Source: Eremomyces bilateralis CBS 781.70 (taxonomy: Eukaryota; Ascomycota; Dothideomycetes; Eremomycetales; Eremomycetaceae). Taken from it: DNA of 64,000 bases. The translations under genes and the position numbers were made by a program. The DNA lies in the NCBI RefSeq assembly GCF_010015585.1, contig NW_022985085.1:68384-132383 (forward strand). Direction: 5' to 3'. Positions 27,237 to 63,785 of this stretch are shown in pieces (positions within the stretch are counted from its first letter, which is position 1; each line of letters starts with the position of its first letter). A model generated the notes under the pieces. That model searched no databases and was not told the DNA's origin. It saw only the letters and a program-made list of their open reading frames with translations.

Positions 27237-29678
27237 TCACTCCCATGCATCTCCCCAACCTTCATCCTCATCGTCTTGCTTCTCCGCTTTCTTCGAAGTG
27301 GGTTTCGGTTGCGGTGCTGGAGTAGGCTTCGATGAAACTACGCTTTTCCTCACAGTACTACCGCCTATGACCGTAGATTTGGTCCCTGTACCCGATCGAG
27401 ACGCGGGCGCCTTTTTAAGCCCTGTAGGCAATGGTTTGGCCTTCTTCGAAGATTTCTGGGCACTGAGCCATCCCGCAAAGTCAGGTTCCCCTTTGTCTTC
27501 GTACGTCGTGATAGTAGCCGATGTCTTCCGCGGAGCTGCGCTGGAAGCGAACATGTCAAAGTCGTCAGCGGTCGTGTCCTTCTTCGTTTCGGTCGGCTCA
27601 TCCTCGAAATCGCCCCAGGCATCCATAGCGTCTTCGTCCACTGAGTTCTGATCTGACGTCGGCGTAGATACCACAGGTGCGTTAAACGGATTGGGTGACC
27701 CGGTTGACGAATGGGATTTCTTCAACTGAGATGGATTTAATCCACGGGCATTAAGGGGATTGGGAGAGGGTTTCCGTGCATCGGCAGGAGGCGGTACTGA
27801 AGATGGCCTGGTACCATTTGGACTCACGCCATTTGGCACCGTTTGCATCTCGCCACTCGCGGTCGTAAGCTTGTTGGTGAATGATGAGATGGCCCAGCCA
27901 GCCCATGAAGACGAGTCAGATTGATCATTCCCGATACGAGGCGTATTTGAGCTGCTAGTACCAGCGGTTGACTGAAGTGCGGTATCAGGTAAGGTCTGAG
28001 CATACTTGCGTATCCTTTGCATGTAAATATCCAGCGTTTTGTTCGCCTGGTCTCGGATCAGCTTCTCCTTATCGACTAAGGAAGGGGATATCGCAGGGAG
28101 GATCTTGGTTGCCCCATCTTCCTCGCTGAACACATCAGATGTTGCGGCCAGTGCCATCAGCGCTGCGTTTCTGGCATGGATGAACGGGTCTCGAAGCGCC
28201 CGAGAAAATGCGGCGACGAGGATTTTCGAGCGGGAACTCGAATTCAGGTTTCGAGCCAGCTTGCCCAAGCATATCGTTGTGTTCGTTCGAATGCCAGGTT
28301 GGTCGTCGTTGGCGGTTTTCGCAAGATATCGGAGCAATTCCCCGTTGACGGTTCGGTCAGATAGTTTTGGCACGATGGTCAGAACTGCTTTGAGCGTCTG
28401 TTCCCGGACAACCGGAGCCACGTCCGTGAATCCAGTCACCATTTGAGGAAATATCTTGTCATTGACAAGCTTCGGAGGCAGGTGGTCGATCATGAAAGGG
28501 AGGTTGTCTAAAAGACAAACCCTCATGGCACGATCTGGGCTTCCGAATAGTCGAACGATAACCGGATTCATTCGCATCTCGTATTCCTCCTCCGAGAGTT
28601 TAGAGCTGATCTTCACCACCATCCCGAAGACCTTCGCACCACCACCCCCGAACTCCACCGATTTTAAAAGTTCGGGGAGAACTTTCATTTTGAAGAATTC
28701 TTCGGGAAAGTCATCGGACAATTCATCGAGCTCGCCCAAGAATTCTTCCCGCTCATCGTCAGACTTCAGCCCCAGGTTTTCGATGGCATCGGTGATGTGA
28801 ATGAGTGGCGTCTGAAAGAACCCGCCGCTCCTCTCCCCTTGGTCCAGAAATTGTCCGACCGTGCTCCGAGTCTTCGGATTCGCGTTGACAAGTCGTCTGT
28901 AGCTCTGCTGCATGCTCGGAGGGACAGCCTTCAACTGGCTCAGCTGCTCTCTTCCATTAAAACTTCCGTTACACACCTCAAAAATCAGGATGCCGAAGTT
29001 GTACGCATCCACGGCGGTGAGCGGATTCTTTTTGATCGCCTCCCATCCGGAGTTCGCGACTTCCGGAGGGCTATATCGCCCGGAGTCGGGGACGAGGCTC
29101 CCAAACGGATATATCACCGCATCGTCTTCTTTCATCGAGCTGAGAATATCGAAGCCGCCGAGCTTCCACTCTCCACTCTCGCCCATGAATATGGACGCGA
29201 CCCGCAACGAACCGTGAACGGATGATGCATCCTCGTTGATGAACTTCACCGTCTTCGCGACGCTGTGAAGACCCCACTTGATCGTTTCCTCGGCAAGGCT
29301 CTTCCTCTTGATGTGCCACGTCAGAGGTACCAGGCGCTCGGTCGCGATGTATATGTATTGCTCCGTCTCGACAGAGTCCAGGACCTTGATTACGCCAGGA
29401 TGTCGTAGCGTTCGGAGTTTACGAGCGGCATTTCGAGCGAGGGGAAGCCGTGACTTGTTGGCTTGCACATCGAAAGACAATATGCTGCACTTGGAACCGT
29501 CTTCCTGCATAATCGGTCAGCATCTCATGATATTCCTCCGCGTAGGAGCGCATACCTTTCTGGTCCCGTTATGTAGCGTCCATATCGAGTCAGAGAGGTC
29601 GACGCGGTCGCCGAAGGAGTAGGGAAATGGAGGCCCTTTGGATATGGCTGAAGCTACTGCCGACTTCAGAAAGTCCAT
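27237..29678 (-). CDS. SCY1-family pseudokinase with HEAT repeats (Cex1/SCYL-like)
   Basis: Exons 29678-29556 and 29504-27237 give 796 residues; the 51-nt phase-0 intron joins LHNGTRK to EDGSKCSILSF. An N-terminal kinase-like fold covers about residues 20-300, but the catalytic signatures are degenerate: the HRD loop reads VHGSL and the DFG position reads GGFD, so it is a pseudokinase. HEAT repeats span about 340-560 (VRLFGSPDRAMRVCLLDNLP, VVREQTLKAVLTIVPKL, PGIRTNTTICLGKLA). The rest is disordered and ends DEGWGDAWE. SCY1 proteins link COPI-coated vesicles to tRNA export; yeast Cex1 takes tRNA from exportin at the nuclear pore. An in-frame ATG lies inside the intron, so one-exon models would misplace the start. 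It is convergent with the secreted-protein gene. Confidence 0.93.
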
Positions 29679-37735: not shown

Positions 37736-39429
37736 ATGTCTAAACGCGTCAAATATTCAGAGGAGACTATACTCTACAGAAAGCACTCAAGAAGGCTACA
37801 GAGCAAAAAAAAGCAGGAAAATCGGTTAACGTTTCAGCGTTAGCGCGTGAGTTCCAAATCAGCCGGCCTGTCCTTCGAGGCCGCCTTGAAGGAAAAACAT
37901 CCTATACCAAACGTTCTTCGTTCGTACAAGCGACTAAACTCGGTCAGCTACAAGAAAAGGCTCTCCTAGCTTGGATCCATCAGCTTGATGAGTGGGGAGC
38001 GCCTCCTACGCCTACAGAAATCGAAGCGTGCGCCAACTCTATACTCCGAAGAAACGCCCTCGATACAACGCAGCCACCTCACGTTAGTAAGAACTGGAAA
38101 TATAAATTTATCAAGCGCCACACCCTTTCGCTTATCGACCAAAAACCAGTCAAAGACGACCGCCTACGCGCTGAGGATCTTGGACATATACAGTATTGGT
38201 TTCAACTCCTTCAGGAGCAGATTCAAGAGCATGGAATTGAGGCCCGGAATATATATAATTTCGACGAAAGTGGCTTCCGCCTTGGTGAAGGGAAGCGCCA
38301 AAAAGTAGTCAGTTTCCGACCGGGGGCAAAACGAGGCAGTCCTAGTACAGAGTCAGGCGAATCGGTTACGGATATCGAGTGTATCGCTGCTGATGGTTTC
38401 GTTCTCCCGCCGTACTTTATCCTAAAGGGCGAGAACCATCTTGAACGATGGTACGAAAACCGGATTCCAGACGATTACCGTATCAATATCTCTAAGACTG
38501 GATGGTCAAACGACCTCATTGCCTTCGATTGGATCCAGCATTTCCATCGGTATACAAGTCACAGAGCTAAGAAGGGGAAACGACTCCTTCTAATGGATAA
38601 CCATACTTCGCATCTTACCTATGAGTTTATTCAATTCTGCGAAAAAGTTGATATTATTCTTGTCCCATTTCCTCCGCATACGACCCATTTCCTTCAGCCG
38701 CTTGATGGGAAGCCGTTTCTTGCGTTAAAACACTACTTCCGGCAGACAAATACGAAGATTTCACGGTGGGGATTCGACGCGGCGGAAAAGGCCTCATTCC
38801 TTACAGAAATGCCCCAGATCCGCCAAAACGCCTTCAAATCGCGTACGATTCGACACGCTTTTAAAGAGAGGGGCCTTTGGCCATGCGATCCTGAGCAGAT
38901 TTTGCCAACCCTTCGGCAACAGGTTGACCAAGAGGCAGAGGAGCTTCACATATTCAATGGCTCGCCTCCACCGTCAAGTATTACGGCAACACCGTGCGTA
39001 TCTCCACCAAATACTATTCGTACGGTACGCCGGAAACAACAGAAGATCATAAATACGCCTGAGGCCCTACTTTCTAGCCGGAAATACCAACGTCGCGTTC
39101 GCCAAGCTACAAACTCATTGATCAAGGCGGTCGAAGAGATCGAGGCGTATAAGGGGTCCGTTTCAGCCACACAACGCCAGCAAACCAAAAAGAGTCGCCG
39201 CCAGGTTAAAACAGGACTTCGCCAGACCGGTGCTTCGTACGTTAGTGAGGCGAAACGCCATATCGAGGCGCGTGGTCAGAAGGAGCGGGAGGCGGTAATT
39301 AGGAAGGCACAGCGGGACTGGCGGCAGGAAAAACAACAGGAAAGTCAGCAGGAACCATCTCCTGCACTCGGTCAACCTACTAGTACGGAGGATCTCGGTT
39401 TTTTTATCGATTTACATCCTGAGTTCTGA
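37736..39429 (+). pseudogene. Fot1/pogo transposase, frame broken near the N-terminus
   Basis: The protein frame is open from 37744 to 39429 without a stop. The natural start ATG at 37736 is in another frame, which fits the family only up to about 37779 (MSKRVKYSEETIL). A one-base shift at about 37779-37780 therefore separates the start from the body, and no ATG occurs in the main frame until 38593. Recognisable parts are a psq-type helix-turn-helix (KALKKATEQKKAGKSVNVSA, then LAREFQISRPVLRGRL), a CENP-B-like helix region, and the DDE catalytic domain: YNFDESGF (Asp at 38263), LLLMDNHTSH (Asp at 38596) and FLQPLD (Asp at 38704), a DD35D spacing. The basic C-terminal tail is present. Apart from the single shift the copy looks whole, so frameshifting or a tiny intron cannot be fully excluded. 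Confidence 0.88.
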
Positions 39430-45649: not shown

Positions 45650-47043
45650 CTCTGCAAAAGTTGGCTACAGCTCAAAAACTATGCCAACGCCTTACACCGG
45701 AGTAAGAGACCTTTCTAGTCGATTGGATACTCGAGAATAACGCCCAGGGACTTCCTCCTTCCCACGCACGGGTACGTGAAATGGCCTCTCGAGTCTTCCG
45801 TCTCCAAGGCGACTCTCCACCCTTGGGAAGAACTGGGTGCCGCGCTTTCTACACCGCAATCCACGCGTTGCAACATGTGTAGGACGTAGTCTTGATGTTA
45901 CTAGACGTCAGGCTACAACGCAAGGTGCAGTTGACGGATTCTATGCGTATTTCCAGCAAGTCCAACAAAAGTACGATATCCACCTCTCTGATACCTGGAA
46001 TATAGATGAGGTCGGTGTAGGACTCGGTATATGCGCTAATTCTACAGTTATCACAGACTCGCAGAAGTCAACAGCCTATATCACTAGTCCTGTAGACGGC
46101 GAATGGATTAGTATCATCGAAACCGTCTCTAAGACCGGGCAGTCTCTCCGACCTACCATTATCCAGAAAGGCATGTCAATCCAGGCCTCCTGGTTCCCGG
46201 ATGCCCCTCCAGACTTCCATTATACAGTCTCCGAGAACGGCTGGACCTCAAATCAACTCGCATTAATCTTGCTTCGTACAGTATTCCTACCTGAAACCGC
46301 CGTTCAAGGGCGATACCGGATTCTCCTACTCGATGGACACGGAAGCCACGCAACGGTCGATTCTCTTTACGAATGCAGGATCAACGATGTTATTGCGGTC
46401 TTCCTACCTGCGCATACCTCGCATATCCTACAGCCCCTCGATCTCGCCTGTTTTTCGCCTCTGAAACGCTTCTACAAGAGCCTTATCCGCTAGAACGCAC
46501 AAGATTCATTGTCCTATACGCAGAGGCGCGCCGGAAACGCCTGACCGTCCGGACAATCAGGTCAGGGTGGAAGGCTGCAGGTCTAATGACGTGGGACCGT
46601 CAAAGGGCCTAAATAACCGCTTCGTTGCTCCGCCTGCGCCTGCTGAAAATCCACCCTCAAACGAACCATCAAGAACGCCTCCACAGACCCCAAGATCAGT
46701 CCATCCAGTTCTCCAGACCACGCCGTACAAGCCAAAACAGGTTCAGACTGCATTACGTGTCCTTAGCAGGAATATACGCGTCACAGAGACGACGAGGGCG
46801 TATATTAAGAAGGCAGGCAAGGCGATCGGAGTGCTACAGACGCGTCAGGCCGCATCAGATCTCAAAATGGAAACGCAAGAAGAAGGTACGGGGAGTTCTA
46901 AACCAACTGTTTGCACAGGTTCGAGAGATCAAGATCGCATAGAGGTAGTAAGGGGTCTGAAGGAAGACTACCAAAGGAGGCATCCCGTTTCAGAGGCCCA
47001 ATCAACGTCAGAGACTCTTCAAACGATGTCTTTCGAATCCTAG
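45650..47043 (+). pseudogene. Decayed pogo-family transposase (DD35D)
   Basis: The longest open part (45837-46493) contains the catalytic region: WNIDEVGVGLG with the first Asp, ILLLDGHGSHATVDSLYECR with the second, and HILQPLDLACFSPLKRFYKS with the third, spaced 35 residues as in pogo/Tan1-type elements. The N-terminal helix-turn-helix part (SHARVREMASRVFRLQGDSP in another frame around 45750-45825) and the C-terminal part (LYAEARRKRLTVRTIRSGWK around 46515-46575 and the following tail) lie in other frames, so at least three shifts break the gene. It differs strongly from the Fot1-type copy at 37.6 kb and is clearly a separate, older family. No terminal inverted repeats or TA duplication could be identified. 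Confidence 0.82.
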
Positions 47044-47161: not shown

Positions 47162-50100
47162 TCAAAAAAACAAACCTCCTTTGCAATGATGCGCACAGCC
47201 GAAAGGCGCTCTCATTGATTCCCTATCATGGCGAACACACTGTCTTTTGCCCCTCGCTTGCTCTGCTCCCTCAGAACAAGCTCTAACGGAACATGCTCTA
47301 TCTTCTCTGAGACGAGCCCAACGAGCGCATCCCACGCATCGATCTTCATAGCAGGATCGCAGAAATTGTATCAGTTTATACCCAATGCGCAAGAAGGCAT
47401 GTCGGCGGATTTCTGGTGTTCGCCTCTGGTGTTCGTACAATTCCCACCACCTGTCTGTGAGTCGGAGACATTCCTCAAAGGCCAATTTTGCTTCAGCATC
47501 GTCAAAGAGCCGACGAATTTGTTTGGCTTCGCATTGCTCTTTTATATTTATGTAAAAATCCTGTGCTCTTGGATCTTCTTTTTGTTCTTCCGCAGTACAC
47601 CTCAAGCACTCTTCGCAAAGGCTCATGGCTTCTTTGGCGTCATTTTCCTTTAGCGCTTGCCGAGCAACGGCTTGCAGATAAGTGGACTTGACTTCATAGA
47701 AGGCCTGTCTCGATACGCTTGGAAACGTGCATCCTCTCCAACGTTTCTCCATGTCCGCATAAAGCTTGGAGCTCTGCGTAATATTGCCATTGGCAGTTGC
47801 GTTTTGTAAGGCAGAGTAGGCATGCTCCCAGTGTTTTCTCTCTGTGTAGGTGATAAAATCGCCGACATCGACCTTTGAGATTTTTGAAATAGAATCAACA
47901 ATGGCCCTCGCTACATCGAAGTCTGCGTTTGACAGTGCCAAGTACCAATCAACTGTAAGCTTGTGGAGCACACGCTGTTGGAGTAGAGCTTCTCGGAATT
48001 TGGGAAGAAAATTAGAATCGTTTAGGAGATCTTGCAGATATTCTTCCTTTTCCACGAGGCCTTCCAAACTATCCAGCTTTTTAAAACAAAGATCAAAGTC
48101 TTTAACCTCGAATGCAGCTTTGATCTCAAGGAGAAGCGAAGCAAAGGCCTCGGAACAGTTGCACAAACACCAAAACCACTTGGGATCTTGCGCTTTTCCA
48201 CCATACTTTCTCATGATGTATATGAACCGGTCTCTGCTGATTGGAGTTGGGTAAGCAGTGTCGCCATCATTCTCTCTCAGCGTTTTGTAGTGTATCAGCG
48301 CCAAGTGAGTCTGCTCCGGAAAGAGATCAGTCATTGATTCAGCTAGGCTTGTAGCTAGATCAAGAGCGCTCTGAATGCCACCGGTGTCAGACGGAAAAAG
48401 TGTTGACGCTATTTGAAATGCCGATTTCTGCTTTTGTATTTTCTTTTTCAAGTCGGCAACGAGTGGTGGTGCATCGGAAATGAATGAGGATTTCTGAATA
48501 ATTTTTTCAACAGCTGCAACATGTTCAAGTGCCTCGCTGAACAAGAACATGTGAGCTGCGGTTGTAATCAGATTTCCGTGGGACACAACGGCTTCGTACC
48601 AGTTTCCAGTATCAATTGCATCTTCCAATGTGCCTTGCATTTGAATGCGCTGGCGGTATCCACTAAGTGTTTCGAGGTCCAGGTTTAGCAAGGAGTATTG
48701 ACTTGCTCTTTCAAGTTCACCAGAGTCTGGAAAGAATTCCTCTGCTATTGAAAACCATTGTGCGACTTTGATACTGCGATCTTGCATGATCTTCAGCGTC
48801 TCATTGTTCGCACAAGGTGAGTGAGTCCGTACATGATTCTGAATGCAATTGCTCATTTCGGTCAATATGCACTGGAGTTTTCCAATAGCAGAGTGAATCT
48901 TGTCGGACGATGAGCGATCAGAATCCTGATACTCGGCCTGTGGAGCCTTTGTCAAAGTTGTAAAAAGCCATCCATCTGATCCACTTGAAGTCAAGGAAGA
49001 CGGCTTATCATGCACGCAGGTCTCGTCCCGGCTGAGTTGGTGGCGTAGCTGCTCGTTGTATCTAACGACTGCATGCCGAATCTTCTCAGCCTCTTCCTTA
49101 TGATCAAGATCGGAAAGAACAAGGAGGTATGAGGACAGGAAAAGTACCAGCTGTAGTTCAGCCAGACAGTGTATTTGCCTTCTCTGGCAAGTTGCCAATC
49201 TTAAAGCTAATTCACAACTTAAGCTTGTTATCTCTAGTATCTTGCTTTTCAAGGATTGATCACGACCTAAGTTAGAGGAGCAACAGAAGAATAATAGAAC
49301 GCTGAAGAACCAGCCATGTCGCGTCCCCCATTTTGGAAGTTGGTTGAGTTGGATGGTGTTAAGCAATTCAACGAACTTGAGCATAAAGAAGGACCTATCT
49401 GCGATGGTTCCGCTCAAGCTGAAATGCCAGATATAGACGGAAAACAGTCGCTGAGGCCACTGGTCCACTGTAATACGTGGTCTTTCGGAAACACAAGAGT
49501 TTATACAAGTGAGGAGGTTCGCTTTGCCGCGTTCGAGCTGTTGATATAGAGGTGCGGTAACCGTGTGATAGAGGTCCATGTCAAATCGAGAAACATACAA
49601 GTCCTCAATGGTGCTGCGGACCCAGTGGTTTCGTTCCCGGTCGCCAATGTCCTTGAATAATCCGTTCGTACCAGTCTGACCGAGTCCTAGTAATACCCAC
49701 GCTCGGGCCTGTACTGTGAAACTCGGATGTATCATTGAGATCCATTCGTCATCATCCATGCGCAAATATCCTTGATCGGATGCAAGGCGTATGATACGTT
49801 TGGCTTGTGATTTGTACTCAATGTAATTTTCAATCTGTTTCGCAGGCTTGATGTCTTTGCCAGCAAACAAAATAGACAAGTGAACGAGAGCCTTTGGCGA
49901 TGGAGCTTCGTGCCAATATTGGCCAAGAAGGAGCAGGAAAGTAAATTCCCGCCTCGGCAACTGTAAGGAAAGATGACGGAGCTCTTGAGCCATAACTGAA
50001 GATTTGAAGAATGCTGATTCATATTCACAACGCGAGGTAACGAGACCGGCGTGGAGGCGCTCGTAAAGTTGTCCCCACGGCACCCTTAAAATCGATTGTC

Positions 50101-52378
50101 CTCGAAGTATTTCTTTGATTGAAGCTGGAATTCCTTTGAATAAATCGACCACTTGTTCCAAGCTGTTGAAATCTTCATGTGTCCAACAGTCAATATCCTC
50201 ACCCGCTTCGCGAAGAATCCGTTCCGCAAGTTCAATGGCGTCGACCATTTCAAGACCTTGAAGTTCGTAGCACGGTGTATCTTGCTTTTGGCCGATGTAC
50301 ATTTCGAGCCAGTTGGTCTCAGAACACCTAGCGGAACAAATAACATAATTTCTTTTGTTCTCGCTAGGAGCCATGAAATATGAAAGCAACGAGTTGAGAA
50401 ACGAATGATGTTCGAAACGTTGTGTCTTGACTTGATGATCTGACACGCTTGATGGATGGCCAATTCTGAGTGCTGTAGCTGACCCATCCAGGATGATGAG
50501 TGTATTGAAAGAGGGGAGGATATTCATAATAATTTGTTGCACAGTGCTCTCGTCATATGAATTCACTGACAGGGAGGTGATAGTCCAAAGCCGTGGTTCG
50601 TAGATTTTGGCATCGGCATTGAATAGTTGTCGAAGAACCGAGACGCTGAGTTCTTCTCGAGACCCGTACTGCATTGTTTTGAAGTCAATTATGATGCTGA
50701 CGTCAATGAAAGCAGTTGATTTCCATATGTCGCATGCGTATTGTAGAAATGCAGTCTTTCCAACGCCAACTGGCCCTTCGAGGTATATCCGGCCTTTCTC
50801 CAATAGTTTCGTTTCTAATCGGAGAAGGTCAAACTCTCTTCCTGTTATTGTTGGTTTATCCAAATTCTTGAGACTTTCATCAATGTCCATAAAGGTCTGG
50901 GGGGTCTCAAGGAGTGTTTCAGTAGTGACCAAATTGGGCGTCGAGAGGATGAAATCGCAACTAGCGGAATATACCACAGGCACGAACCAGTCCATATGGG
51001 TTCTCGTAAGCCCAAATCTTGCAGGGCGGCTGGAATGTATGCGAAGCATACGTCGTGAAATAGCAGCGGCGCGAGTAAAAGACATTCCACCTATGAAAAG
51101 TTCATGGTAGAAAGAGCCCAAGAATATCTCTGCTGCTCCGCTTGAAACCTTGAACGACATGGCAAGTACATTCCGAACGCCATGCGTGTAAAAAACCTTG
51201 GCAATATTCCCATCGTCTCCGCAATTAGCTCTGGCAGATTCGCAGGCATTGAGAACGACATAGGGGATCTTGTATTGACTCAGTGTTCTCGCCACCATAT
51301 GAGCTGCTATGGGCGTGGTACATTCTAACTCGGGGTGACTGAAGTAAAGGATTCCAAATTTCGACGCTTTGCCAATCCGCGTGCCAACTCTGCCATGGAG
51401 GTCGAAATGAACGATGTGATAGTAATTCGCACCATGGATATCTTGAGACCGTTGCAAATGCTGCTTGAAAGATGTAAAAGTTCCGGGTCGCACGACTTCT
51501 ACATTCAAACGCAGATTGTTTGCCTTGCTCTTCGACATGCTCTTCAATATTTGCTGAACTCTGATTAGAACACCAGACGCGAGGGACGGATTTACATCGT
51601 TGTAGAAGTTCGCATTTTTCGAAGTGTGCCTTGCTACCACTAGGAGTATGTTGATCGACATGCATTTGACAACACCTGGTTCGCAGGAAGGTGGTTGAAT
51701 AGGCGATAGTTGTACGGTAGAAGACTCGGGAAAAGAACGAGTGACGACAACATCCAGTTGATCATTCCACGTCGCTGGGACCTCTAGTAATTCCCAGTGC
51801 AACTGGTGTATCGTACTTTCATGTTTGTCGAAGATACACGCCTCGTCGAGGATCTCGATCAACACGGTGCGGTGGGTACTTCCTTGAGGAAATTGAGCGA
51901 CGATTGTTTGAAGATGTAGCTGCTTGGAGAGATATGCAGCGTAGCTGCCAAGGAGATATTCAGCATCCTTCGCGAGGTCGACTGAAAAGGGCGATCGGCT
52001 AGTGAATTCCTCGAGGTACCAACGGCAAAAGGTCTTCTGTTCTTGCTTGAGAGGATCCTCAAGTAACGCGTTTTGCACCACTCTTTTCTCGTCCAAGAAC
52101 ACGTCAATAGTCCAGCTAGAGGTCGCTTCTCCGAGACTACCAGCTGTTCGTGCCACAATCCTCAATTTTATAGGAGGCGAAGTGGAAGCCATGTTTCTCC
52201 ATGTGAAGGTGGGATTTATTGTCGTGTAAGTCTCTTCAATAGAAAGAGTAGGTTGAGGTAACAGAAGTTGTCCGTTCTCACCAGATACGGACGAGGATGA
52301 TAGATATGGAATCTCAGTGCCTGATGAAACAGGCCCATGCCAGATGAAACAGGCCCATGCCAGATGAAACAGGCCCAT
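47162..52378 (-). CDS. CHAT-protease / P-loop NTPase receptor-like protein (NLR-like)
   Basis: A single uninterrupted frame of 1738 codons. Residues 193-201 (LHWELLEVP) open a CHAT (caspase-like) domain running to about 475. The expected catalytic dyad is visible: His328 in IVHFDLHG and Cys379 in VVLNACESA. A P-loop NTPase follows at about 505-760, with Walker A GPVGVGKT at 535-542 and Walker B LIILDG at 627-632. The remaining 950 residues are helical and TPR-like (KENDAKEAMSLCEECLRCTA near the C-terminus). Protease-NTPase-repeat architecture is that of NLR-like receptors. In fungi such CHAT or subtilisin proteases are encoded beside gasdermin genes and cleave them. The start is ambiguous: the first 62 residues run through a 20-bp tandem repeat, and Met63 (MASTSPPIKLRIV, ATG at 52192) is the more likely start. 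The gasdermin-like gene is divergent and close by. Confidence 0.88.
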   Translation of the reverse strand: MGLFHLAWACFIWHGPVSSGTEIPYLSSSSVSGENGQLLLPQPTLSIEETYTTINPTFTWRNMASTSPPIKLRIVARTAGSLGEATSSWTIDVFLDEKRVVQNALLEDPLKQEQKTFCRWYLEEFTSRSPFSVDLAKDAEYLLGSYAAYLSKQLHLQTIVAQFPQGSTHRTVLIEILDEACIFDKHESTIHQLHWELLEVPATWNDQLDVVVTRSFPESSTVQLSPIQPPSCEPGVVKCMSINILLVVARHTSKNANFYNDVNPSLASGVLIRVQQILKSMSKSKANNLRLNVEVVRPGTFTSFKQHLQRSQDIHGANYYHIVHFDLHGRVGTRIGKASKFGILYFSHPELECTTPIAAHMVARTLSQYKIPYVVLNACESARANCGDDGNIAKVFYTHGVRNVLAMSFKVSSGAAEIFLGSFYHELFIGGMSFTRAAAISRRMLRIHSSRPARFGLTRTHMDWFVPVVYSASCDFILSTPNLVTTETLLETPQTFMDIDESLKNLDKPTITGREFDLLRLETKLLEKGRIYLEGPVGVGKTAFLQYACDIWKSTAFIDVSIIIDFKTMQYGSREELSVSVLRQLFNADAKIYEPRLWTITSLSVNSYDESTVQQIIMNILPSFNTLIILDGSATALRIGHPSSVSDHQVKTQRFEHHSFLNSLLSYFMAPSENKRNYVICSARCSETNWLEMYIGQKQDTPCYELQGLEMVDAIELAERILREAGEDIDCWTHEDFNSLEQVVDLFKGIPASIKEILRGQSILRVPWGQLYERLHAGLVTSRCEYESAFFKSSVMAQELRHLSLQLPRREFTFLLLLGQYWHEAPSPKALVHLSILFAGKDIKPAKQIENYIEYKSQAKRIIRLASDQGYLRMDDDEWISMIHPSFTVQARAWVLLGLGQTGTNGLFKDIGDRERNHWVRSTIEDLYVSRFDMDLYHTVTAPLYQQLERGKANLLTCINSCVSERPRITVDQWPQRLFSVYIWHFSLSGTIADRSFFMLKFVELLNTIQLNQLPKWGTRHGWFFSVLLFFCCSSNLGRDQSLKSKILEITSLSCELALRLATCQRRQIHCLAELQLVLFLSSYLLVLSDLDHKEEAEKIRHAVVRYNEQLRHQLSRDETCVHDKPSSLTSSGSDGWLFTTLTKAPQAEYQDSDRSSSDKIHSAIGKLQCILTEMSNCIQNHVRTHSPCANNETLKIMQDRSIKVAQWFSIAEEFFPDSGELERASQYSLLNLDLETLSGYRQRIQMQGTLEDAIDTGNWYEAVVSHGNLITTAAHMFLFSEALEHVAAVEKIIQKSSFISDAPPLVADLKKKIQKQKSAFQIASTLFPSDTGGIQSALDLATSLAESMTDLFPEQTHLALIHYKTLRENDGDTAYPTPISRDRFIYIMRKYGGKAQDPKWFWCLCNCSEAFASLLLEIKAAFEVKDFDLCFKKLDSLEGLVEKEEYLQDLLNDSNFLPKFREALLQQRVLHKLTVDWYLALSNADFDVARAIVDSISKISKVDVGDFITYTERKHWEHAYSALQNATANGNITQSSKLYADMEKRWRGCTFPSVSRQAFYEVKSTYLQAVARQALKENDAKEAMSLCEECLRCTAEEQKEDPRAQDFYINIKEQCEAKQIRRLFDDAEAKLAFEECLRLTDRWWELYEHQRRTPEIRRHAFLRIGYKLIQFLRSCYEDRCVGCARWARLREDRACSVRACSEGAEQARGKRQCVRHDRESMRAPFGCAHHCKGGLFF

Positions 52379-52573
52379 GGCAGTCTTCCTGGCCGATATG
52401 TCAGGTCTATTGCCCTAACACAGCGACAACAGAGGGCAATATAAATAACGCAATCACCCCTTGGGACTAACAAGGTCTCAACACTTTAGAGACCTGCAGC
52501 ATTTCCTTCTTACTTCGGGCCCCACTCGGTTCCAAACAAGGCTCAGGTCTCCTGCGATATCAGTTTCAGCCGC
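52193..52573. promoter_or_regulatory. Shared divergent promoter of the CHAT receptor and the gasdermin-like gene
   Basis: If the receptor starts at Met63, 381 bp separate the two start codons and must drive both, suggesting co-expression. It contains a three-copy 20-bp tandem repeat at 52323-52382. No clear TATA box is present. Confidence 0.55.
52323..52382. repeat. Three-copy 20-bp tandem repeat between the divergent pair
   Basis: Three head-to-tail copies of gatgaaacaggcccatgcca, the third with one change (C to G). Each carries CCCAT, so on the minus strand each offers an ATG. Translated there they give MGLFHLA-, WACFIWHG- like residues in different frames because 20 is not a multiple of three. 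Copy-number change would therefore alter the upstream start codons of the receptor. Confidence 0.92.
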
Positions 52574-53539
52574 ATGGTCCTCCCAGAAAGGGAAGAAATC
52601 AAGATGGCAGGGAAACGATACTTTATTCTGGAAGAAACAATCGCCGCAACAGAGATCGAGAGTATGATGGGTCGTGTTGTTATCTCGAAGACGCTGCCAC
52701 TCAACAAGTTTGCGCCATTCCCTGCCATGTCTCCCAATGAACCTTCCCACAACACCAACGATATCATACCTTCAATTCTTCCGAGTCCTTCGCTATCCTT
52801 AAACAGAAAAGAATTCTTTTCTGCCGTTCGAGGACACGAACTTCACGTGGCACTAAGTGCTATTCTTGCCGCGGATATTAAGAGCACGCGAGAGGGCTCG
52901 GCAACGTTAGACAGCCAACAAGTAAAGCGATATACGCTTGACAATCCAGAGCAATACTTCCGTGCTCTTTTACAAAACGAACTGTACAGTCGGGACATGC
53001 GCACTATTCTCGAAGCTAGTAGTACGAAGCGAGGATACTTTGTCACCGGGTTTCTCACCACTACGGAAACCACCTGGAATAGAGAGACTAACCGGTCGAA
53101 GAAAGGAGGCTTCTCAACTTCTCTCCCTGTTTCGCAATTGACAGGATTGCCTCTCCCAGTAATTTCCGACTTAAGAGTGGGATCCGCGCATGAGAGCACC
53201 ACCCAGCATGGGCAAGATATGAGTGTGCCTGCAGAAGAGATCTTTGCAATGTCCTACTCAATTGTCAAACTGGAATACAATTTCAAGCTTTCACTTGCCA
53301 ACCCTATCATAAAAACACCTGTCTTTGGGCCTCCAAAGAGAGCAAAAGCGCGGCATCTTGCTTTGAGTCAAGAGAGTGATGAGGAGATTGAGGATGGCTC
53401 AGATGACGATGATAACAAACACAATAACGGACATGTAGCTTGCAAATGGCCCCGAGGCTCTACTATCAAATTTATCTGGGACAATGGCGACGAGCTTCTG
53501 GGCGATATTCCGGGAACCAGTTTTCTCTTGAATCGGTAG
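52574..53539 (+). CDS. Gasdermin-like pore-forming protein (putative)
   Basis: A single exon of 321 codons; Met11 (MAGKRYFILEE, 52604) is an alternative start. The core at about residues 155-240 reads YFVTGFLTTTETTW, then a basic, Gly-rich KKGGFSTSLPVS, then a polar strand region and SVPAEEIFAMSYSIVKLEYNF. This alternation matches the membrane-inserting beta strands of gasdermin N-terminal domains (compare YVVTEVL... and VTIPSGSTLAFRV... of vertebrate gasdermins). An acidic, disordered linker follows (residues 265-285, SQESDEEIEDGSDDDD) and then a 35-residue tail. Fungal gasdermins such as HET-Q1 have this size and lose a short C-terminal piece on cleavage by a clustered protease, after which they permeabilise the plasma membrane. 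The divergent CHAT receptor gene supports the call. No intron is needed and the frame is whole. Similarity is by pattern only. Confidence 0.6.
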   Translation: MVLPEREEIKMAGKRYFILEETIAATEIESMMGRVVISKTLPLNKFAPFPAMSPNEPSHNTNDIIPSILPSPSLSLNRKEFFSAVRGHELHVALSAILAADIKSTREGSATLDSQQVKRYTLDNPEQYFRALLQNELYSRDMRTILEASSTKRGYFVTGFLTTTETTWNRETNRSKKGGFSTSLPVSQLTGLPLPVISDLRVGSAHESTTQHGQDMSVPAEEIFAMSYSIVKLEYNFKLSLANPIIKTPVFGPPKRAKARHLALSQESDEEIEDGSDDDDNKHNNGHVACKWPRGSTIKFIWDNGDELLGDIPGTSFLLNR

Positions 53540-55004: not shown

Positions 55005-55565
55005 GTGGCAGGTGTCTGGATAAGCAGACAGATGATACCTGCTATTGTATATAAACGCAATATAATGACCTGCCCGGAGGCCGCCTGCAACTGGATCCTT
55101 CAATTCTGTGTCGACCGGAAGGCGTCGATCATTGTCAACGGAAGCGAATCAGCAGTCTACAGCATCCAGCACGCAGGACTACCGCAAGGCTCCCCTCTAA
55201 GCCCAACCCTTTTCCTTTTCTACCACTCAGATCTCGTCCAGAGCAAACATACTGATCGCGGATGGTCGCTAGCATTCGTGGACGACTACTCTGCATGGGT
55301 AGTCGGGCCAAATGAGCGCGAGAACGCAAGGAAGGTCCAGGCGGTTATCATTCCGAAGGTCGAACGATGGAGCTGTACTAGCAGAGCTACCTTCGAGCCG
55401 AGCAAGACCCAATACATCCACTTTACAAGGCTCAAGAAAACGACCGCTTATAAGACCTCAGACCTTACCTTCGCTGGCCAATCGAATACCGCCCAATAAG
55501 AAATCAAAGTCCCAGGGGTTACGCTAAATCAGAAGCTCTCCTTCCACTTGGCACGTCTGGTATGA
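55005..55565 (+). mobile_element. LINE reverse-transcriptase fragment (Tad1/I-type)
   Basis: The frame 55005-55499 encodes a reverse-transcriptase palm: GLPQGSPLSPTLFLFYHSDL and the catalytic FVDDYSAWVVG (F-x-DD in place of YADD). It is followed by SKTQYIHFTRLKK and, past one in-frame stop at 55497, by EIKVPGVTLNQKLSFHLARL in the same frame. Upstream endonuclease and downstream RNase H parts are missing. It is an old, internally truncated piece of a non-LTR retrotransposon, related in type to the truncated copy at 40.4 kb, but it covers a different part of the protein, so they cannot be compared directly. Confidence 0.85.
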
Positions 55566-55644: not shown

Positions 55645-56736
55645 TCACGTAGAGTTTTGCCGTGGCCTCTGTCGACTTTTAGATGCGCCATGTACTGTAA
55701 CTTGAGCTGCCAGGCGATTGAATAACTCAAACTCCATCCTTTCAGCAGCCTTCGAGCCACTTAGTATATCGCCAACTATGTCGGAGCCAGGAGGGAAGTC
55801 ATGCTCAAAGGAAGGCTCGCCAGCACCTCTCATATTTGCTAGAACAGCCTGCCTGAAATGCCATCGCAGCAGTTGATCAATTGGCCGTTGAGGATTATCA
55901 AGTAGCTGTCGGTCGAGATGCTTGCCGGCAAGACCTTTTCCATCAAGGTCAAAGAACATAATCTTATAATCATCCTGGAATAGTGTTAGTTAGCCAGAAT
56001 ACAGCTACAAGAGTATATAACATACATACGTCTGGATTAATAGAGAGGATGTAGTTGTCAAAGAGTTGGTGTACGCCAGAATTAAGTAATAACCCGTTTT
56101 GTACTGAGTTGATTGCTCCGCCATCGTCTGGTTGAATAGTAATCCAGCGGTCGTAGCCATGATCTTTCCAATGACCTTCGTAAGCTATTGGAAATATATG
56201 TGCGGCCTCAAAGCTGTCCCAGCGGTCGAATTGCGCCGCGACTGCTACCTCTCCAGATATAACGCACCGACGATCTCGTGAGCGTACAGCATCGCGGAAA
56301 CAATGGGTACGAGTTCCAGTAGAAACAGATATCGTACGGACTAGCCACGACTCGTTGTTGACCGCGAAAGAACCTATATTCGGAGTAAAGATTAGCCTGG
56401 GTATGATAAGATGGCTGTACACTTACCAGCGGCATGAATGTAGTAATTCCCCGGCCAAAGTGGATCATCAGTCCTTTGGATCTTGGTGCCTTCTTCGTTT
56501 TGTAGTTCGAAAGCAGTTGTGAACAAGACGAGAATCTCCACCATCGAGTAGAAGTTGGCATTCGTGACGCCATTCGTAAGAATTAGACCACCGAGAACAG
56601 TAGTGCGGTCGCTGGCATCGTAGATATGAACGTCGCGACCTAGTGACCGATTGCGTGAAGGCATTATAGAACTTTGCGGCGGATTCAGAGGATCGGGGGT
56701 TCTGGAGGGTGTCGCGGACGTTTTCGGAGACGACAT
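55645..56736 (-). CDS. HNH_2 domain protein
   Basis: Exons in transcript order 56736-56427, 56373-56030 and 55974-55645 give 327 residues; introns are 53 and 55 nt, both with TAG or CAG acceptors, the first splitting a Gly codon (YIHAAG|SFAVNNE). The N-terminal third is Ser/Pro-rich and then forms a strand-rich region (RSLGRDVHIYDASDRTTVLG). A fungal HNH_2 nuclease-type domain follows: RDRRCVISGEVA, FEAAHIFPIAYEGHW with the first His, and NSVQNGLLLNSGVHQLFDNY with the Asn and last His. These proteins are widespread in fungal accessory regions; whether they cut DNA is unknown. A second, distinct HNH_2 gene lies 1.7 kb away, on the other strand. Confidence 0.88.
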
Positions 56737-60121: not shown

Positions 60122-61300
60122 TTACCTCAGGCTCTCAGGCCCTTCAGTGGGACGCAAAGGCGCTAACCCAAAATGGGTCACCCACACGAAGGGCCTGAGA
60201 CAAATTTGAAATTTTTTGGTGGCGTTGACGTTCGTGGCATGCAAATTGCCCCTCCAAGCTCCGCTGCGAACTCGTCTCGAAATCGACATCAAGTCAAAGT
60301 ACGAAGCCAAACAGCGCGTCCAAGTCGGCAACCAAACATATTCCTAAATCCCCGATCTCATTAGGCGAGGTGGCTAAGTAGTCATGAAGAATCCTGAGAC
60401 CTGAGTAATAGTAGTAGGTTGCAGCATTGATATTGGAGATGCGAGAACTATTTAATAACTAACAGCGAACCTTAAGGACGGAAGAGAGTGAGTTCCTTCT
60501 GCCTATTGATTCGTATATGCTTGCTGAACTGACGTAGAACTCTTGGACAGCCGATCTCTGAATATGGTTTCTAAAGGATCTTCTTCTTCGACTGTAGCAG
60601 AAAATGGCGCATCTGCTCCATCTTCATTGTTACCGCCTCCAACATCGAAGGCAAGGACTCGCGATCAGGGGGGCGCGGTAGTTTGTGTAGCAGAATGGTC
60701 GATAGCTGGGATCCATAGCTCCGAATTCCAAATTTTTGAGATAGAATTGGTCTATATTGCGCGTAGAATCATTCCATGAAGCTGATGATGTTGACCTGAA
60801 TGCTCACCAATTTGCATGCCACGAACGTCAACGCCACCAAAAAATTTCAAATTTGTCTCAGGCCCTTCGTGTGGGTGACCCATTTTGGGTTAGCGCCTTT
60901 GCGTCCCACTGAAGGGCCTGAGAGCCTGAGGTAATATCTAAGCTCTAATACGTCACCTCCATAGTAATCTACATCTTCTCCTAACTATCTGTCTTTGCAA
61001 CAGCGATAAATGGTTAAGGAGCCTGATTGGGCTCGGTCAGCATGGGGAGCGGAGCCCATTTAGGCCAGAGGCCTGTTTGGGACGACGGCTAGATTGACTC
61101 GACCACAAGTTATAACTAGCCTTTTATATATATCTATACGGAATGCCCCGAGAAATGGCTATGCTTTTATTATTTTTCTACTTTTGTCTGGCGGCAAATC
61201 GTAGTATTGCGCAAAGGGAATGGAGCTCGGTTGGTGAGGGGGTCCCAGGGGTTTAACCCTTCAGGAGAACGTACTGAGTATGTTCGCCTAGGTTGATCCC
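59919..61300 (+). repeat. Direct repeat copy B, interrupted by an 813-bp element
   Basis: Block 1 (59919-60001) and block 2 (61012-61300) match copy A at 57248-57626. Between them lie about 110 bases absent from copy A, the 813-bp inverted-repeat element (60122-60934) and about 75 more bases. Block 2 has a TATATATATC stretch followed by a short hydrophobic ORF start (MAMLLLFFYFCLAANRS) and ends at the putative acceptor CGCCTAG before HET-like coding sequence. Confidence 0.78.
60122..60934. mobile_element. Non-autonomous DNA element with perfect 127-bp inverted repeats and 8-bp target duplication
   Basis: Ends are TTACCTCAGGCTCTCAGGCC (60122 on) and its exact reverse complement ending at 60934. 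The inverted repeats (60122-60248 and 60808-60934) look identical over all 127 bases. The 8-mer TATCTAAG flanks both sides (60114-60121 and 60935-60942), a target duplication. An 8-bp duplication fits hAT-like or Mutator-like transposons; the long inverted repeats favour a MULE-type non-autonomous element. The 560-bp interior has only short frames (for example 60543-60779, 78 codons, no recognised transposase). Identity of the ends implies a very recent insertion or active family. Confidence 0.88.
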
Positions 61301-63785
61301 ATCTGCATCGACAAGTCAAGTAGCGCCGAGCTCACGGAGGCTATCAACTCTATGTTTCGCTGGTACCGGGATGCAGCAAAATGCTATGTGTATCTCTGAC
61401 GTTTCAACAGGAAAGCACACCCGGTCTTCAGAGGTCCTATGGGAATCGGCGTTTAGACAGAGTCGATGGTTCACCAGAGGCTGGACACTACAAGAGATTC
61501 TTGCTCCGCGATCGGTCGAGTTTTTCTCCCGAGACGGCAAGCGACTTGGTGATAAAGAGTCGTTAGAACAGCAAATTCATAAGATCACTGGGATTGCAAT
61601 TGACGCACTTCGAGGACATGTGTCTCAATTCAGCGACAATGAGCGAATGTCATGGGCAGAAAAGCGAGAGACCACGAAGGAAGAGGATCAAGCATATTGC
61701 CTCATGGGAATCTTTGACGTCTCCCTACCAGTCACCTATGGCGAGAGGAAAAGAAAAGCACTCGAACGGCTTCGAGAGGCGATCGATAAGCGTTCAGGCA
61801 ATATGCGAGGTAATTCAACCGCCGAATTTTTTAGTTAGCTGGCTAATCTGCGAAGTGGAATGGAACGACAAGGAACTAGAATGTATGCAAGCCCTGCGTA
61901 ATTCAGCTTCCGACTACGAGCAGTTCAAAGACAGGAACGATAGCCGACTTAGAGATACCTGCCGATGGGTTCTCCGTCATGACAATTTCCGAAACTGGAA
62001 AGACAGCAGCTCCTCAAGTCTTCTTTGGATATCTGCGGATCCTGGATGCGGAAAATCTGTTTTCTCAAAATCTCTTGCCGACGACCTCAAACACACGGAC
62101 GGTCACACAACTTGTTACTTCTTCTTCAAAGACGACGACGACGTACAGAAAAGTGCAGTTACAGCGCTTGCGGCACTACTCCACCAGTTCTTTCGGCAGA
62201 AACCAGCACTTATCAAACACGCTATGTTGGATTTCACCGCTAATGGAGATAAACTTTCTCAATCATTTCATATACTCTGGAGTATTCTAATAAAGATAGT
62301 GGCTGATCGGAATGCCGGAGAAGTCTTTTGTGTCTTAGATGCCCTCGACGAATGCGCAGAAGCAGGGCAGTATCAGATTATTAACGCTCTCAGTTCATTC
62401 TACCAGCAAGCAAGCTCTAGAAACAATACATCTCGACTTAAAATATGTATCACTAGTCGTCCTTACCCAGACATCGAACGGCGCTTTACTGATCTTACTT
62501 CTAACTTTCCTACGATTCGGCTACACGGTGAGCAGGAATCAGATGAAATCAGTCGTGAGATCGACCTAGTCATCAAATGGAGAGTATCTCAACTCGGATC
62601 TGAGCTCAAGCTCAATAATTCAGAATAGTCAAATCTCGAAACAGAGCTGTTAAAGATGAACCACCGAACATACCTCTGGTTAACACTCATTTTCGATATC
62701 ATTCGCAAAATGATTCGACCGACAAGTCGGAAACTGAAGGCAGTTATTAGTGACCTTCCGTCTACAGTTAATGAAGCATACGAAGCGATTCTTGCAAAAA
62801 TCGAGGATGATCGACCACAAGCACGGAAATTGTTCTCCATCGTTGTTGGAGCAACCAGGCCTCTTACGCTGAGGGAAATGAACATCGCTCTAGCTATAGA
62901 AGACCGTCATCGCTCCTATAACGACCTTGAACCTGATCTTGACTATGAAGAGAGGTTTAAAGCGTCGGTGAGACACCTCTGCGGGCTCTTTGTGACTGTT
63001 GTGGATCAAAAGGTCTATCTGATCCATCAGACTGCAAAAGAATTCCTTCTCGCGAAAAGTGAGGCCGCTACTATTGGATGGAAACATTCTCGTGTTCCAA
63101 CGGATTCTGAGACCCTTATGGCCAGAGCATGCCTTATATATCTTTCATTCACTAAATTTGATGGAGCGACAGATCAGATCTCTGCAGCAGTCAAACACGG
63201 CTACTTAGATTATGCGGCAGGTTTTTGGGCTGCCCACTGTCGAAAAGTGCAGCATAGTGCAGCCGAGCAAATGTCGGACTTGGTTTTCCGAGTCTGCGCT
63301 ACACGATCCCAGCGGTTCAAGACTTGGTTCGATGTGTACTGGCGGATGGCTCACCAGTGGCAGTCCAATCACAGTTCACAAGCATTTTGATGGTAGAGTC
63401 ATATTTTGGGCACGAGGGTATCGTCAAGCTACTGCTCGAGGCCAAGGCCGACGCCGACTCGAAGGATGAGTACTACGGCGGGGCGCCGCTATGGTGGGCG
63501 GCCGAGAACGGGCATGAGGGTATCGTCAAGCTGCTGCTTGAGGCCAAGGCCGACGTCGACCCGAAGGATAACGACGGTCTGACGCCGCTGTCGGGGCCGG
63601 CAGCAAACGGTCACGAAGGTATCGTCAAGCTGCTGCTCGAGGCCATGGCCGATGTCGACTCGAAGGATAGCGACGATGTGACGCCGCTGTCGGGGGCGGC
63701 CGCAAACGGGCACGAGGGTGTCGTGAAGCTGCTGGAGTCCTTCAGCGGTATATCATTTGCAGCCTCCTCCCCACCCACTACCTAA
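61292..63785 (+). pseudogene. Broken HET - NACHT - ankyrin (NLR-like) gene
   Basis: Three parts of a fungal NLR are readable in order. The second half of a HET domain is at about 61292-61800 (CIDKSSSAELTEAINSMFRW, FTRGWTLQEILAPRSVEFFS, ASWESLTSP equivalents in the GIFDVSLPVTYGERKRKALE segment). A NACHT NTPase is at about 61870-62620, with P-loop SADPGCGKS near 62031 and Walker B VFCVLDALDECAEA. A helical linker (62656-63390) and about four ankyrin repeats (63405-63745) follow. The usual first exon of the HET domain is not found upstream, where direct-repeat copy B sits instead. The reading frame is interrupted about three times and the ankyrin array is short, so I read it as a fossil of an incompatibility-type receptor. 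Confidence 0.85.
63405..63745 (+). repeat. Ankyrin-coding tandem repeats, unit about 99-102 bp
   Basis: Four copies of a unit encoding GHEGIVKLLLEAKADVDSKD with PLSGAAAN between helices. DNA-level similarity between neighbours is high, suggesting recent duplication or homogenisation, as known for repeat domains of fungal NLRs. Confidence 0.88.

What the first reader, a model, noticed from the sequence alone, without database searches (positions are those of the whole stretch)
47162..53539. Divergent CHAT-NLR and gasdermin-like gene pair: a candidate two-gene cell-death module
A 1738-codon protease-NTPase-repeat receptor and a 321-codon gasdermin-like protein are transcribed head to head from a spacer of under 400 bp. 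Seen: CHAT His/Cys motifs, Walker A/B, and a gasdermin-like strand pattern followed by an acidic linker and short tail. Known: fungal gasdermins (HET-Q1 with its partner HET-Q2) are activated by proteolytic removal of a short C-terminal piece, and gasdermin genes are often clustered with subtilisin or CHAT protease genes, some NLR-like. Inferred: the receptor senses a non-self cue, its CHAT domain cuts the partner, and the freed domain permeabilises the membrane. The whole frames and shared promoter suggest it is functional.
Basis: partly seen in the sequence, partly recalled or inferred. Interest (0 to 1): 0.92.

Follow-up and report, generated by a model that had tools for sequence, protein, structure and literature searches.

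The report
Fungal CHAT receptor beside gasdermin candidate
A fungal gene for a large caspase-like receptor lies head to head with a small gene that may encode a pore-forming cell-death protein, an arrangement already described in fungi, and the pore-former's identity could not be proven here.

Summary
The pair is real, but its key part is unproven. The 1738-codon minus-strand ORF has a sound CHAT protease domain (Pfam E 1.5e-12, His and Cys motifs in place) and a P-loop that matches NACHT below its cut-off; no C-terminal repeat family was found. Codon scores put its likely start at Met63 (spacer about 381 bp) and hint at a change of reading frame near 47390, so "whole frames" is only partly right. 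The 321-codon ORF 52574-53539 has a modest coding signal, a basic core, an acidic linker and a 38-residue tail, but matches no family above a cut-off, and both single-sequence AlphaFold models failed (pLDDT 32). It aligns along the human gasdermin-D pore domain better than shuffles in some settings, not against GSDME or a recalled GSDMA; profile tests are near chance. These tests lack power: animal gasdermin queries list no fungal gasdermin either. CHAT-NLR plus gasdermin two-gene clusters are published (dozens, PMC10197012). Best reading: another member of that known kind, with the gasdermin step inferred. Interest modest.

The parts
47162..52378 (-). Listed ORF of the CHAT receptor, 1738 codons; likely start Met63 at 52192; last roughly 70 codons doubtful
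51023..51679 (-). CHAT caspase-like protease domain (residues 234-452), with HFDLHG and NACES motifs
   Evidence: Pfam PF12770 E 1.5e-12; motif positions
50207..50788 (-). P-loop NTPase, NACHT-like (residues 531-724)
   Evidence: PF05729 E 0.014, below cut-off; P-loop and Walker-B-like motif
47390..49531 (-). Long C-terminal part without any recognised repeat family, presumed sensor
   Evidence: no repeat family; sensor role is inference
47212..47390 (-). Stretch where the coding signal may move to the adjacent frame (unmodelled intron or frame change)
   Evidence: frame scores; sequence
52193..52573 (.). Divergent spacer between the likely start codons, 381 bp; presumed shared promoter region
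   Evidence: shared regulation is inference
52318..52383 (.). Tandem repeat, 20-bp unit, 3.3 copies
   Evidence: also D1
52574..53539 (+). Small ORF, 321 codons (or 311 from the second Met at 52604): gasdermin candidate
   Evidence: no family above a cut-off
53342..53422 (+). Residues 257-283, net charge -7: acidic linker candidate
53423..53536 (+). 38-residue tail (4.2 kDa), candidate inhibitory piece
   Evidence: role is inference

Best explanation
A fungal two-gene pyroptosis-like cell-death unit. Shown: a CHAT cysteine-protease domain joined to a P-loop region and a long C-terminal part, divergently next to a small ORF with a modest coding signal, a basic core, an acidic linker and a short tail. 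Inferred: the small protein is a fungal gasdermin held inactive by its tail; when the receptor senses a non-self or stress cue and oligomerises through its NTPase, its CHAT domain cuts the linker, and the freed core makes membrane pores that kill the cell or hyphal compartment.
For: CHAT domain and both motifs. P-loop. Divergent neighbour with a modest coding signal. Core residues 11-256 have pI 9.0, the linker net charge -7, the tail 4.2 kDa, close to the ~5 kDa lost by HET-Q1 (PMC12881547 section 20). Local alignment to the human GSDMD pore domain, whose letters matched a PDB chain over 242 residues, runs along nearly the whole domain; with BLOSUM45 0 of 1000 shuffles were as good in each of two gap settings, with BLOSUM62 85 and 2 of 1000. 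hhalign's best stretch with the full-domain profile falls in the corresponding helix and strand. Published context: ~80% of fungal gasdermin genes cluster with protease genes, ~19% with CHAT genes, and the receptors include dozens of CHAT NLRs or NLR-like proteins (PMC10197012 section 15); a TPR-bearing CHAT protease activates its clustered gasdermin in P. anserina (PMC12881547 section 20).
Against: No family above a cut-off in four libraries; three PDB searches with it or its pieces gave only chance hits. In end-gap-free alignment shuffles were as good in 312 to 977 of 1000 for GSDME, 99 to 666 for a recalled GSDMA, 11 to 353 for mouse GSDMD; the GSDMA3 segment gave 186 to 755 of 1000. Profile tests are near chance: hhalign 7 of 150 shuffles and 1 of 48 decoy ORFs as good, hmmsearch rank 14 of 1580 reported; short-segment profiles were worse, and the best stretch lay in the tail, not at the expected place. 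One of 45 decoy ORFs scored 157 against 162. NACHT below cut-off; no repeats found.
Confidence: 0.65

Rival explanations
1. The small protein is the receptor's cleaved partner but belongs to another effector family, not gasdermin; the CHAT domain releases its core from an acidic linker and tail, and it acts on membranes or otherwise.
For: No family or structure match; gasdermin tests near chance except for human and, borderline, mouse GSDMD.
Against: Colinear alignment to human GSDMD, the published frequency of gasdermins beside CHAT receptors, fitting length and tail size.
Confidence: 0.2
2. The two genes are unrelated neighbours: a CHAT receptor and a fungus-specific gene that happen to be divergent.
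For: Mobile-element fragments on both sides suggest a rearranged region; linkage in relatives could not be tested.
Against: Close divergent spacing of about 381 bp and the published clustering of such receptors with effectors.
Confidence: 0.1
3. The unit is decaying: the receptor's end has lost its frame and the pair no longer works.
For: The coding signal seems to change frame near 47390; an NLR-type receptor split over several frames lies at 61278-63785.
Against: The frame stays open for about 1600 codons before that point, a small intron could explain the change, and the small ORF is uninterrupted.
Confidence: 0.05

Closest known systems
Fungal gasdermin / CHAT-NLR two-gene clusters (Q2L receptors; Clave et al. 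2022 as told in PMC10197012 and PMC12881547)
   Same: CHAT protease domain joined to an NLR-like protein, gene next to a small candidate pore-former with a short tail
   Different: Gasdermin identity of the small protein not shown; NACHT match sub-threshold; no known repeat found in the C-terminal part
HET-Q1 / HET-Q2 of Podospora anserina
   Same: Small protein of similar size (278 aa for HET-Q1) with a C-terminal piece about the size of the one removed
   Different: HET-Q2 is a 388-residue S8 serine protease, not a CHAT-NLR, and the two genes are idiomorphs
RCD-1 of Neurospora crassa
   Same: Fungal gasdermin of 244-257 aa with a patch of positive charge needed for membrane affinity
   Different: Not controlled by cleavage; no sequence match from our protein
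Bacterial gasdermins with clustered proteases
   Same: Two-gene protease plus pore-former logic
   Different: Bacterial; no match of our protein alone to them

Membership tests
CHAT protease | CHAT domain over the curated score | tested here: met
   PF12770, 48 bits against 24
CHAT protease | His (HG) and Cys (ACxS) catalytic motifs; motif forms recalled | tested here: met
   HFDLHG at 324, NACES at 377
Fungal NLR | NACHT or NB-ARC domain | tested here: inconclusive
   NACHT E 0.014, 15.7 bits against 26.7; P-loop present
Fungal NLR | C-terminal superstructure repeats (ANK, TPR or WD40) | tested here: inconclusive
   none found by Pfam; diverged helical repeats could be missed
Fungal gasdermin | gasdermin pore-forming fold or profile match | tested here: inconclusive
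   no family match; models at pLDDT 32; mixed pairwise results; tests lack power
Fungal gasdermin | short C-terminal inhibitory piece removed by cleavage | tested here: inconclusive
   acidic linker and 4.2-kDa tail present; cleavage not testable
Fungal gasdermin | gene beside a protease gene (about 80% of cases; usual, not obligatory) | tested here: met
   divergent CHAT gene about 381 bp away
Fungal gasdermin | pore formation and cell death | not testable with these tools
   needs expression

The most novel reading that the evidence does not exclude
The small protein is a new family of CHAT-released effector, not a gasdermin, so that caspase-like NLRs in fungi would control more than one kind of executioner.
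Probability: 0.2. Interest if true: 0.55.

Novelty: new member of a known kind. Interest (0 to 1): 0.3.

Why it matters
If the pair works as inferred it is a compact natural analogue of the mammalian inflammasome: receptor, caspase-like protease and pore-former in two neighbouring genes. That idea is already in print for fungi (PMC10197012 section 15), so this locus adds an example and a test case rather than a new principle. What such receptors sense is named as an open question (PMC12881547).

Tried and rejected
Relatives. Small protein in viral contigs (9 stretches matched a pattern, none confirmed) and in genome contigs (33 stretches, none confirmed); receptor in viral contigs (no stretch matched); a C-terminal motif in viral contigs (0 stretches); a mid-protein motif in viral contigs (3 stretches) and genome contigs (8 stretches). 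tblastn of both proteins against L001-L013 and the rest of the window gave nothing better than E 0.41; that match lies antisense in a 714-codon bacterial ORF, so chance. These collections are viral or prokaryotic, so absence means little.

Structure: two single-sequence AlphaFold jobs, pLDDT 32.1 and 31.7. No fold search was run on them, because such models give meaningless matches.

Gasdermin family PF04598 in 3 prokaryote genomes: 1 of 3 with a match, E 0.849 and below cut-off, and one of 14 controls (E. coli) also rang below cut-off; in 395 genomes of one phylum 0 of 395, and 0 of 14 controls rang. Uninformative.

A gasdermin-like strand pattern seen by eye: short-segment tests in 24 combinations ranged from 1 to 755 of 1000 shuffles as good; a segment profile put the small protein at rank 326 of 1090 reported, 2260 sequences given. 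Rejected as proof.

Rfam: 0 matches at gathering score; ARAGORN: 0 genes. RIP-type dinucleotide ratios over 40-64 kb: nothing marked over the pair, judged by thresholds that are recalled.

Full report
What is there. Two divergent ORFs lie at the stated places: 1738 codons on the minus strand (47162-52378) and 321 codons on the plus strand (52574-53539). The window looks fungal by content: HET-like, NACHT and ankyrin-like receptor pieces, pogo-like transposase, Pex19 and other eukaryotic genes. The species is unknown and no genome is held.

The receptor. Pfam finds CHAT at residues 234-452 (E 1.5e-12, 48 bits against 24) and NACHT at 531-724 below its cut-off (E 0.014, 15.7 against 26.7). The motifs HFDLHG (324) and NACES (377), a P-loop (535) and a Walker-B-like LIILDG (627) are in order; that the HG histidine and the ACxS cysteine are the catalytic pair is recalled knowledge of the family. 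PADLOC gives weak matches to SAVED_CHAT (E 0.00042) and BovA (E 0.0026) inside the CHAT domain. NCBIfam gives two matches below cut-off. PDB sequences gave no relevant match.

Gene ends. A codon score trained on the ORF's own middle (codons 101-1560) is flat over the first 62 codons, which include a 20-bp tandem repeat, and rises after Met63 at 52192. From 47480 on the listed frame scores about zero, and one 40-codon window in the next frame, at 47360, scores 0.19. The likely spacer is 381 bp.

The small protein. Scored with the receptor's codon table, its frame is mostly positive (up to 0.23) with dips to about zero, and the other two frames are mostly negative with stops. It has a basic core (pI 9.0 for residues 11-256), a linker of net charge -7 and a 38-residue, 4.2-kDa tail. 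Pfam, PADLOC and PHROGs list nothing; NCBIfam lists one match at E 0.17, below cut-off. PDB searches with the whole protein or its pieces gave only weak hits (E 0.47 or worse) such as actin and CsgC. AlphaFold without relatives failed twice.

Is it a gasdermin? Against the human GSDMD pore domain (letters identical to a PDB chain), local alignment of the small protein was equalled by 85, 2, 0 and 0 of 1000 shuffles under four scoring schemes; against mouse GSDMD by 595, 75, 91 and 23 of 1000; against 45 decoy ORFs of the window it ranked first, 162 against 157. End-gap-free alignment of the core: human GSDMD 1, 1, 35 and 36 of 1000; mouse 11, 32, 353 and 351; a recalled, unchecked GSDMA 99, 119, 665 and 666; GSDME 312, 401, 967 and 977. 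The known pairs GSDME-GSDMD and GSDME-recalled GSDMA gave 0 of 500 each under one scheme. A four-sequence full-domain profile gave rank 14 of 1580 reported by hmmsearch (3049 sequences given: 3000 shuffles, 48 decoys and our protein), and hhalign 7 of 150 shuffles and 1 of 48 decoys as good, although its best stretch is at the corresponding helix and strand. Short-segment profiles did worse: rank 326 of 1090 reported and 18 of 200 shuffles as good, with the best stretch in the tail. The 24 short-segment pairwise tests ranged from 1 to 755 of 1000. Schemes were tried in turn and not corrected for number, so I treat this as a hint only.

Power of these tests. Phmmer with the GSDMD and GSDME pore domains lists animal gasdermins but, at E up to 10, nothing named as a fungal or bacterial gasdermin. 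A profile of four animal sequences plus our protein lists bacterial gasdermins at E 0.0024 and 0.0029 but no fungal one; no search was left for the same profile without our protein, so its share is unknown. That RCD-1 chains are in this PDB copy is assumed from the entry codes 8JYY and 8JYZ and from the neighbouring entries 8jyv and 8jyw being listed. On that assumption a true fungal gasdermin could fail these sequence tests.

What is known. Read as passages or sections: about 80% of fungal gasdermin genes cluster with protease genes, about 19% with CHAT genes; dozens of the receptors are NLRs or NLR-like proteins with a CHAT domain, called contracted pyroptotic-like pathways (PMC10197012, section 15 and passages). 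A second review gives about 17% CHAT among the receptors and 278 residues for HET-Q1 (PMC10989679, passages). A TPR-bearing CHAT protease activates its clustered gasdermin in P. anserina, and HET-Q1 loses about 5 kDa (PMC12881547, section 20 and passages). NLRs with N-terminal CHAT lie beside gasdermin genes (PMC9815663, passages). Of PMC11760362 only the outline and abstract were seen. The primary paper (Clave et al. 2022) is not held and was not read.

Verdict. The arrangement and the protease half fit this known kind; the gasdermin half is likely by context (I put about 0.7 on it) but unproven. The mechanism is inferred throughout. As a finding it is a new member of a known kind.

Noticed in passing
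window 61278-63785 (+): HET-like (E 0.0016, below cut-off), NPHP3_N (E 1.6e-44) and GPIID_WHD domains followed by near-identical repeats that read as ankyrin by eye (99-bp unit, 3.3 copies, 84% matches): an NLR-type receptor split over several frames. Pfam was not run on the repeat part (one search failed).
   Followed up: partly
window 37744-39429 (+) and 45780-46493 (+): Pogo-like transposase with DDE_1 and Tc5-type DNA-binding domains, and a second partial DDE_1 copy beyond the receptor's 3' end.
   Followed up: partly
window 55005-55499 (+): Reverse transcriptase fragment (RVT_1 E 4.9e-09) on the other side of the pair.
   Followed up: no
window 55970-56422 (-): HNH_2 endonuclease domain ORF, E 7.3e-16.
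   Followed up: no
window 27237-29516 (-): Kinase-like domain joined to HEAT repeats, SCYL-like by recalled knowledge.
   Followed up: no
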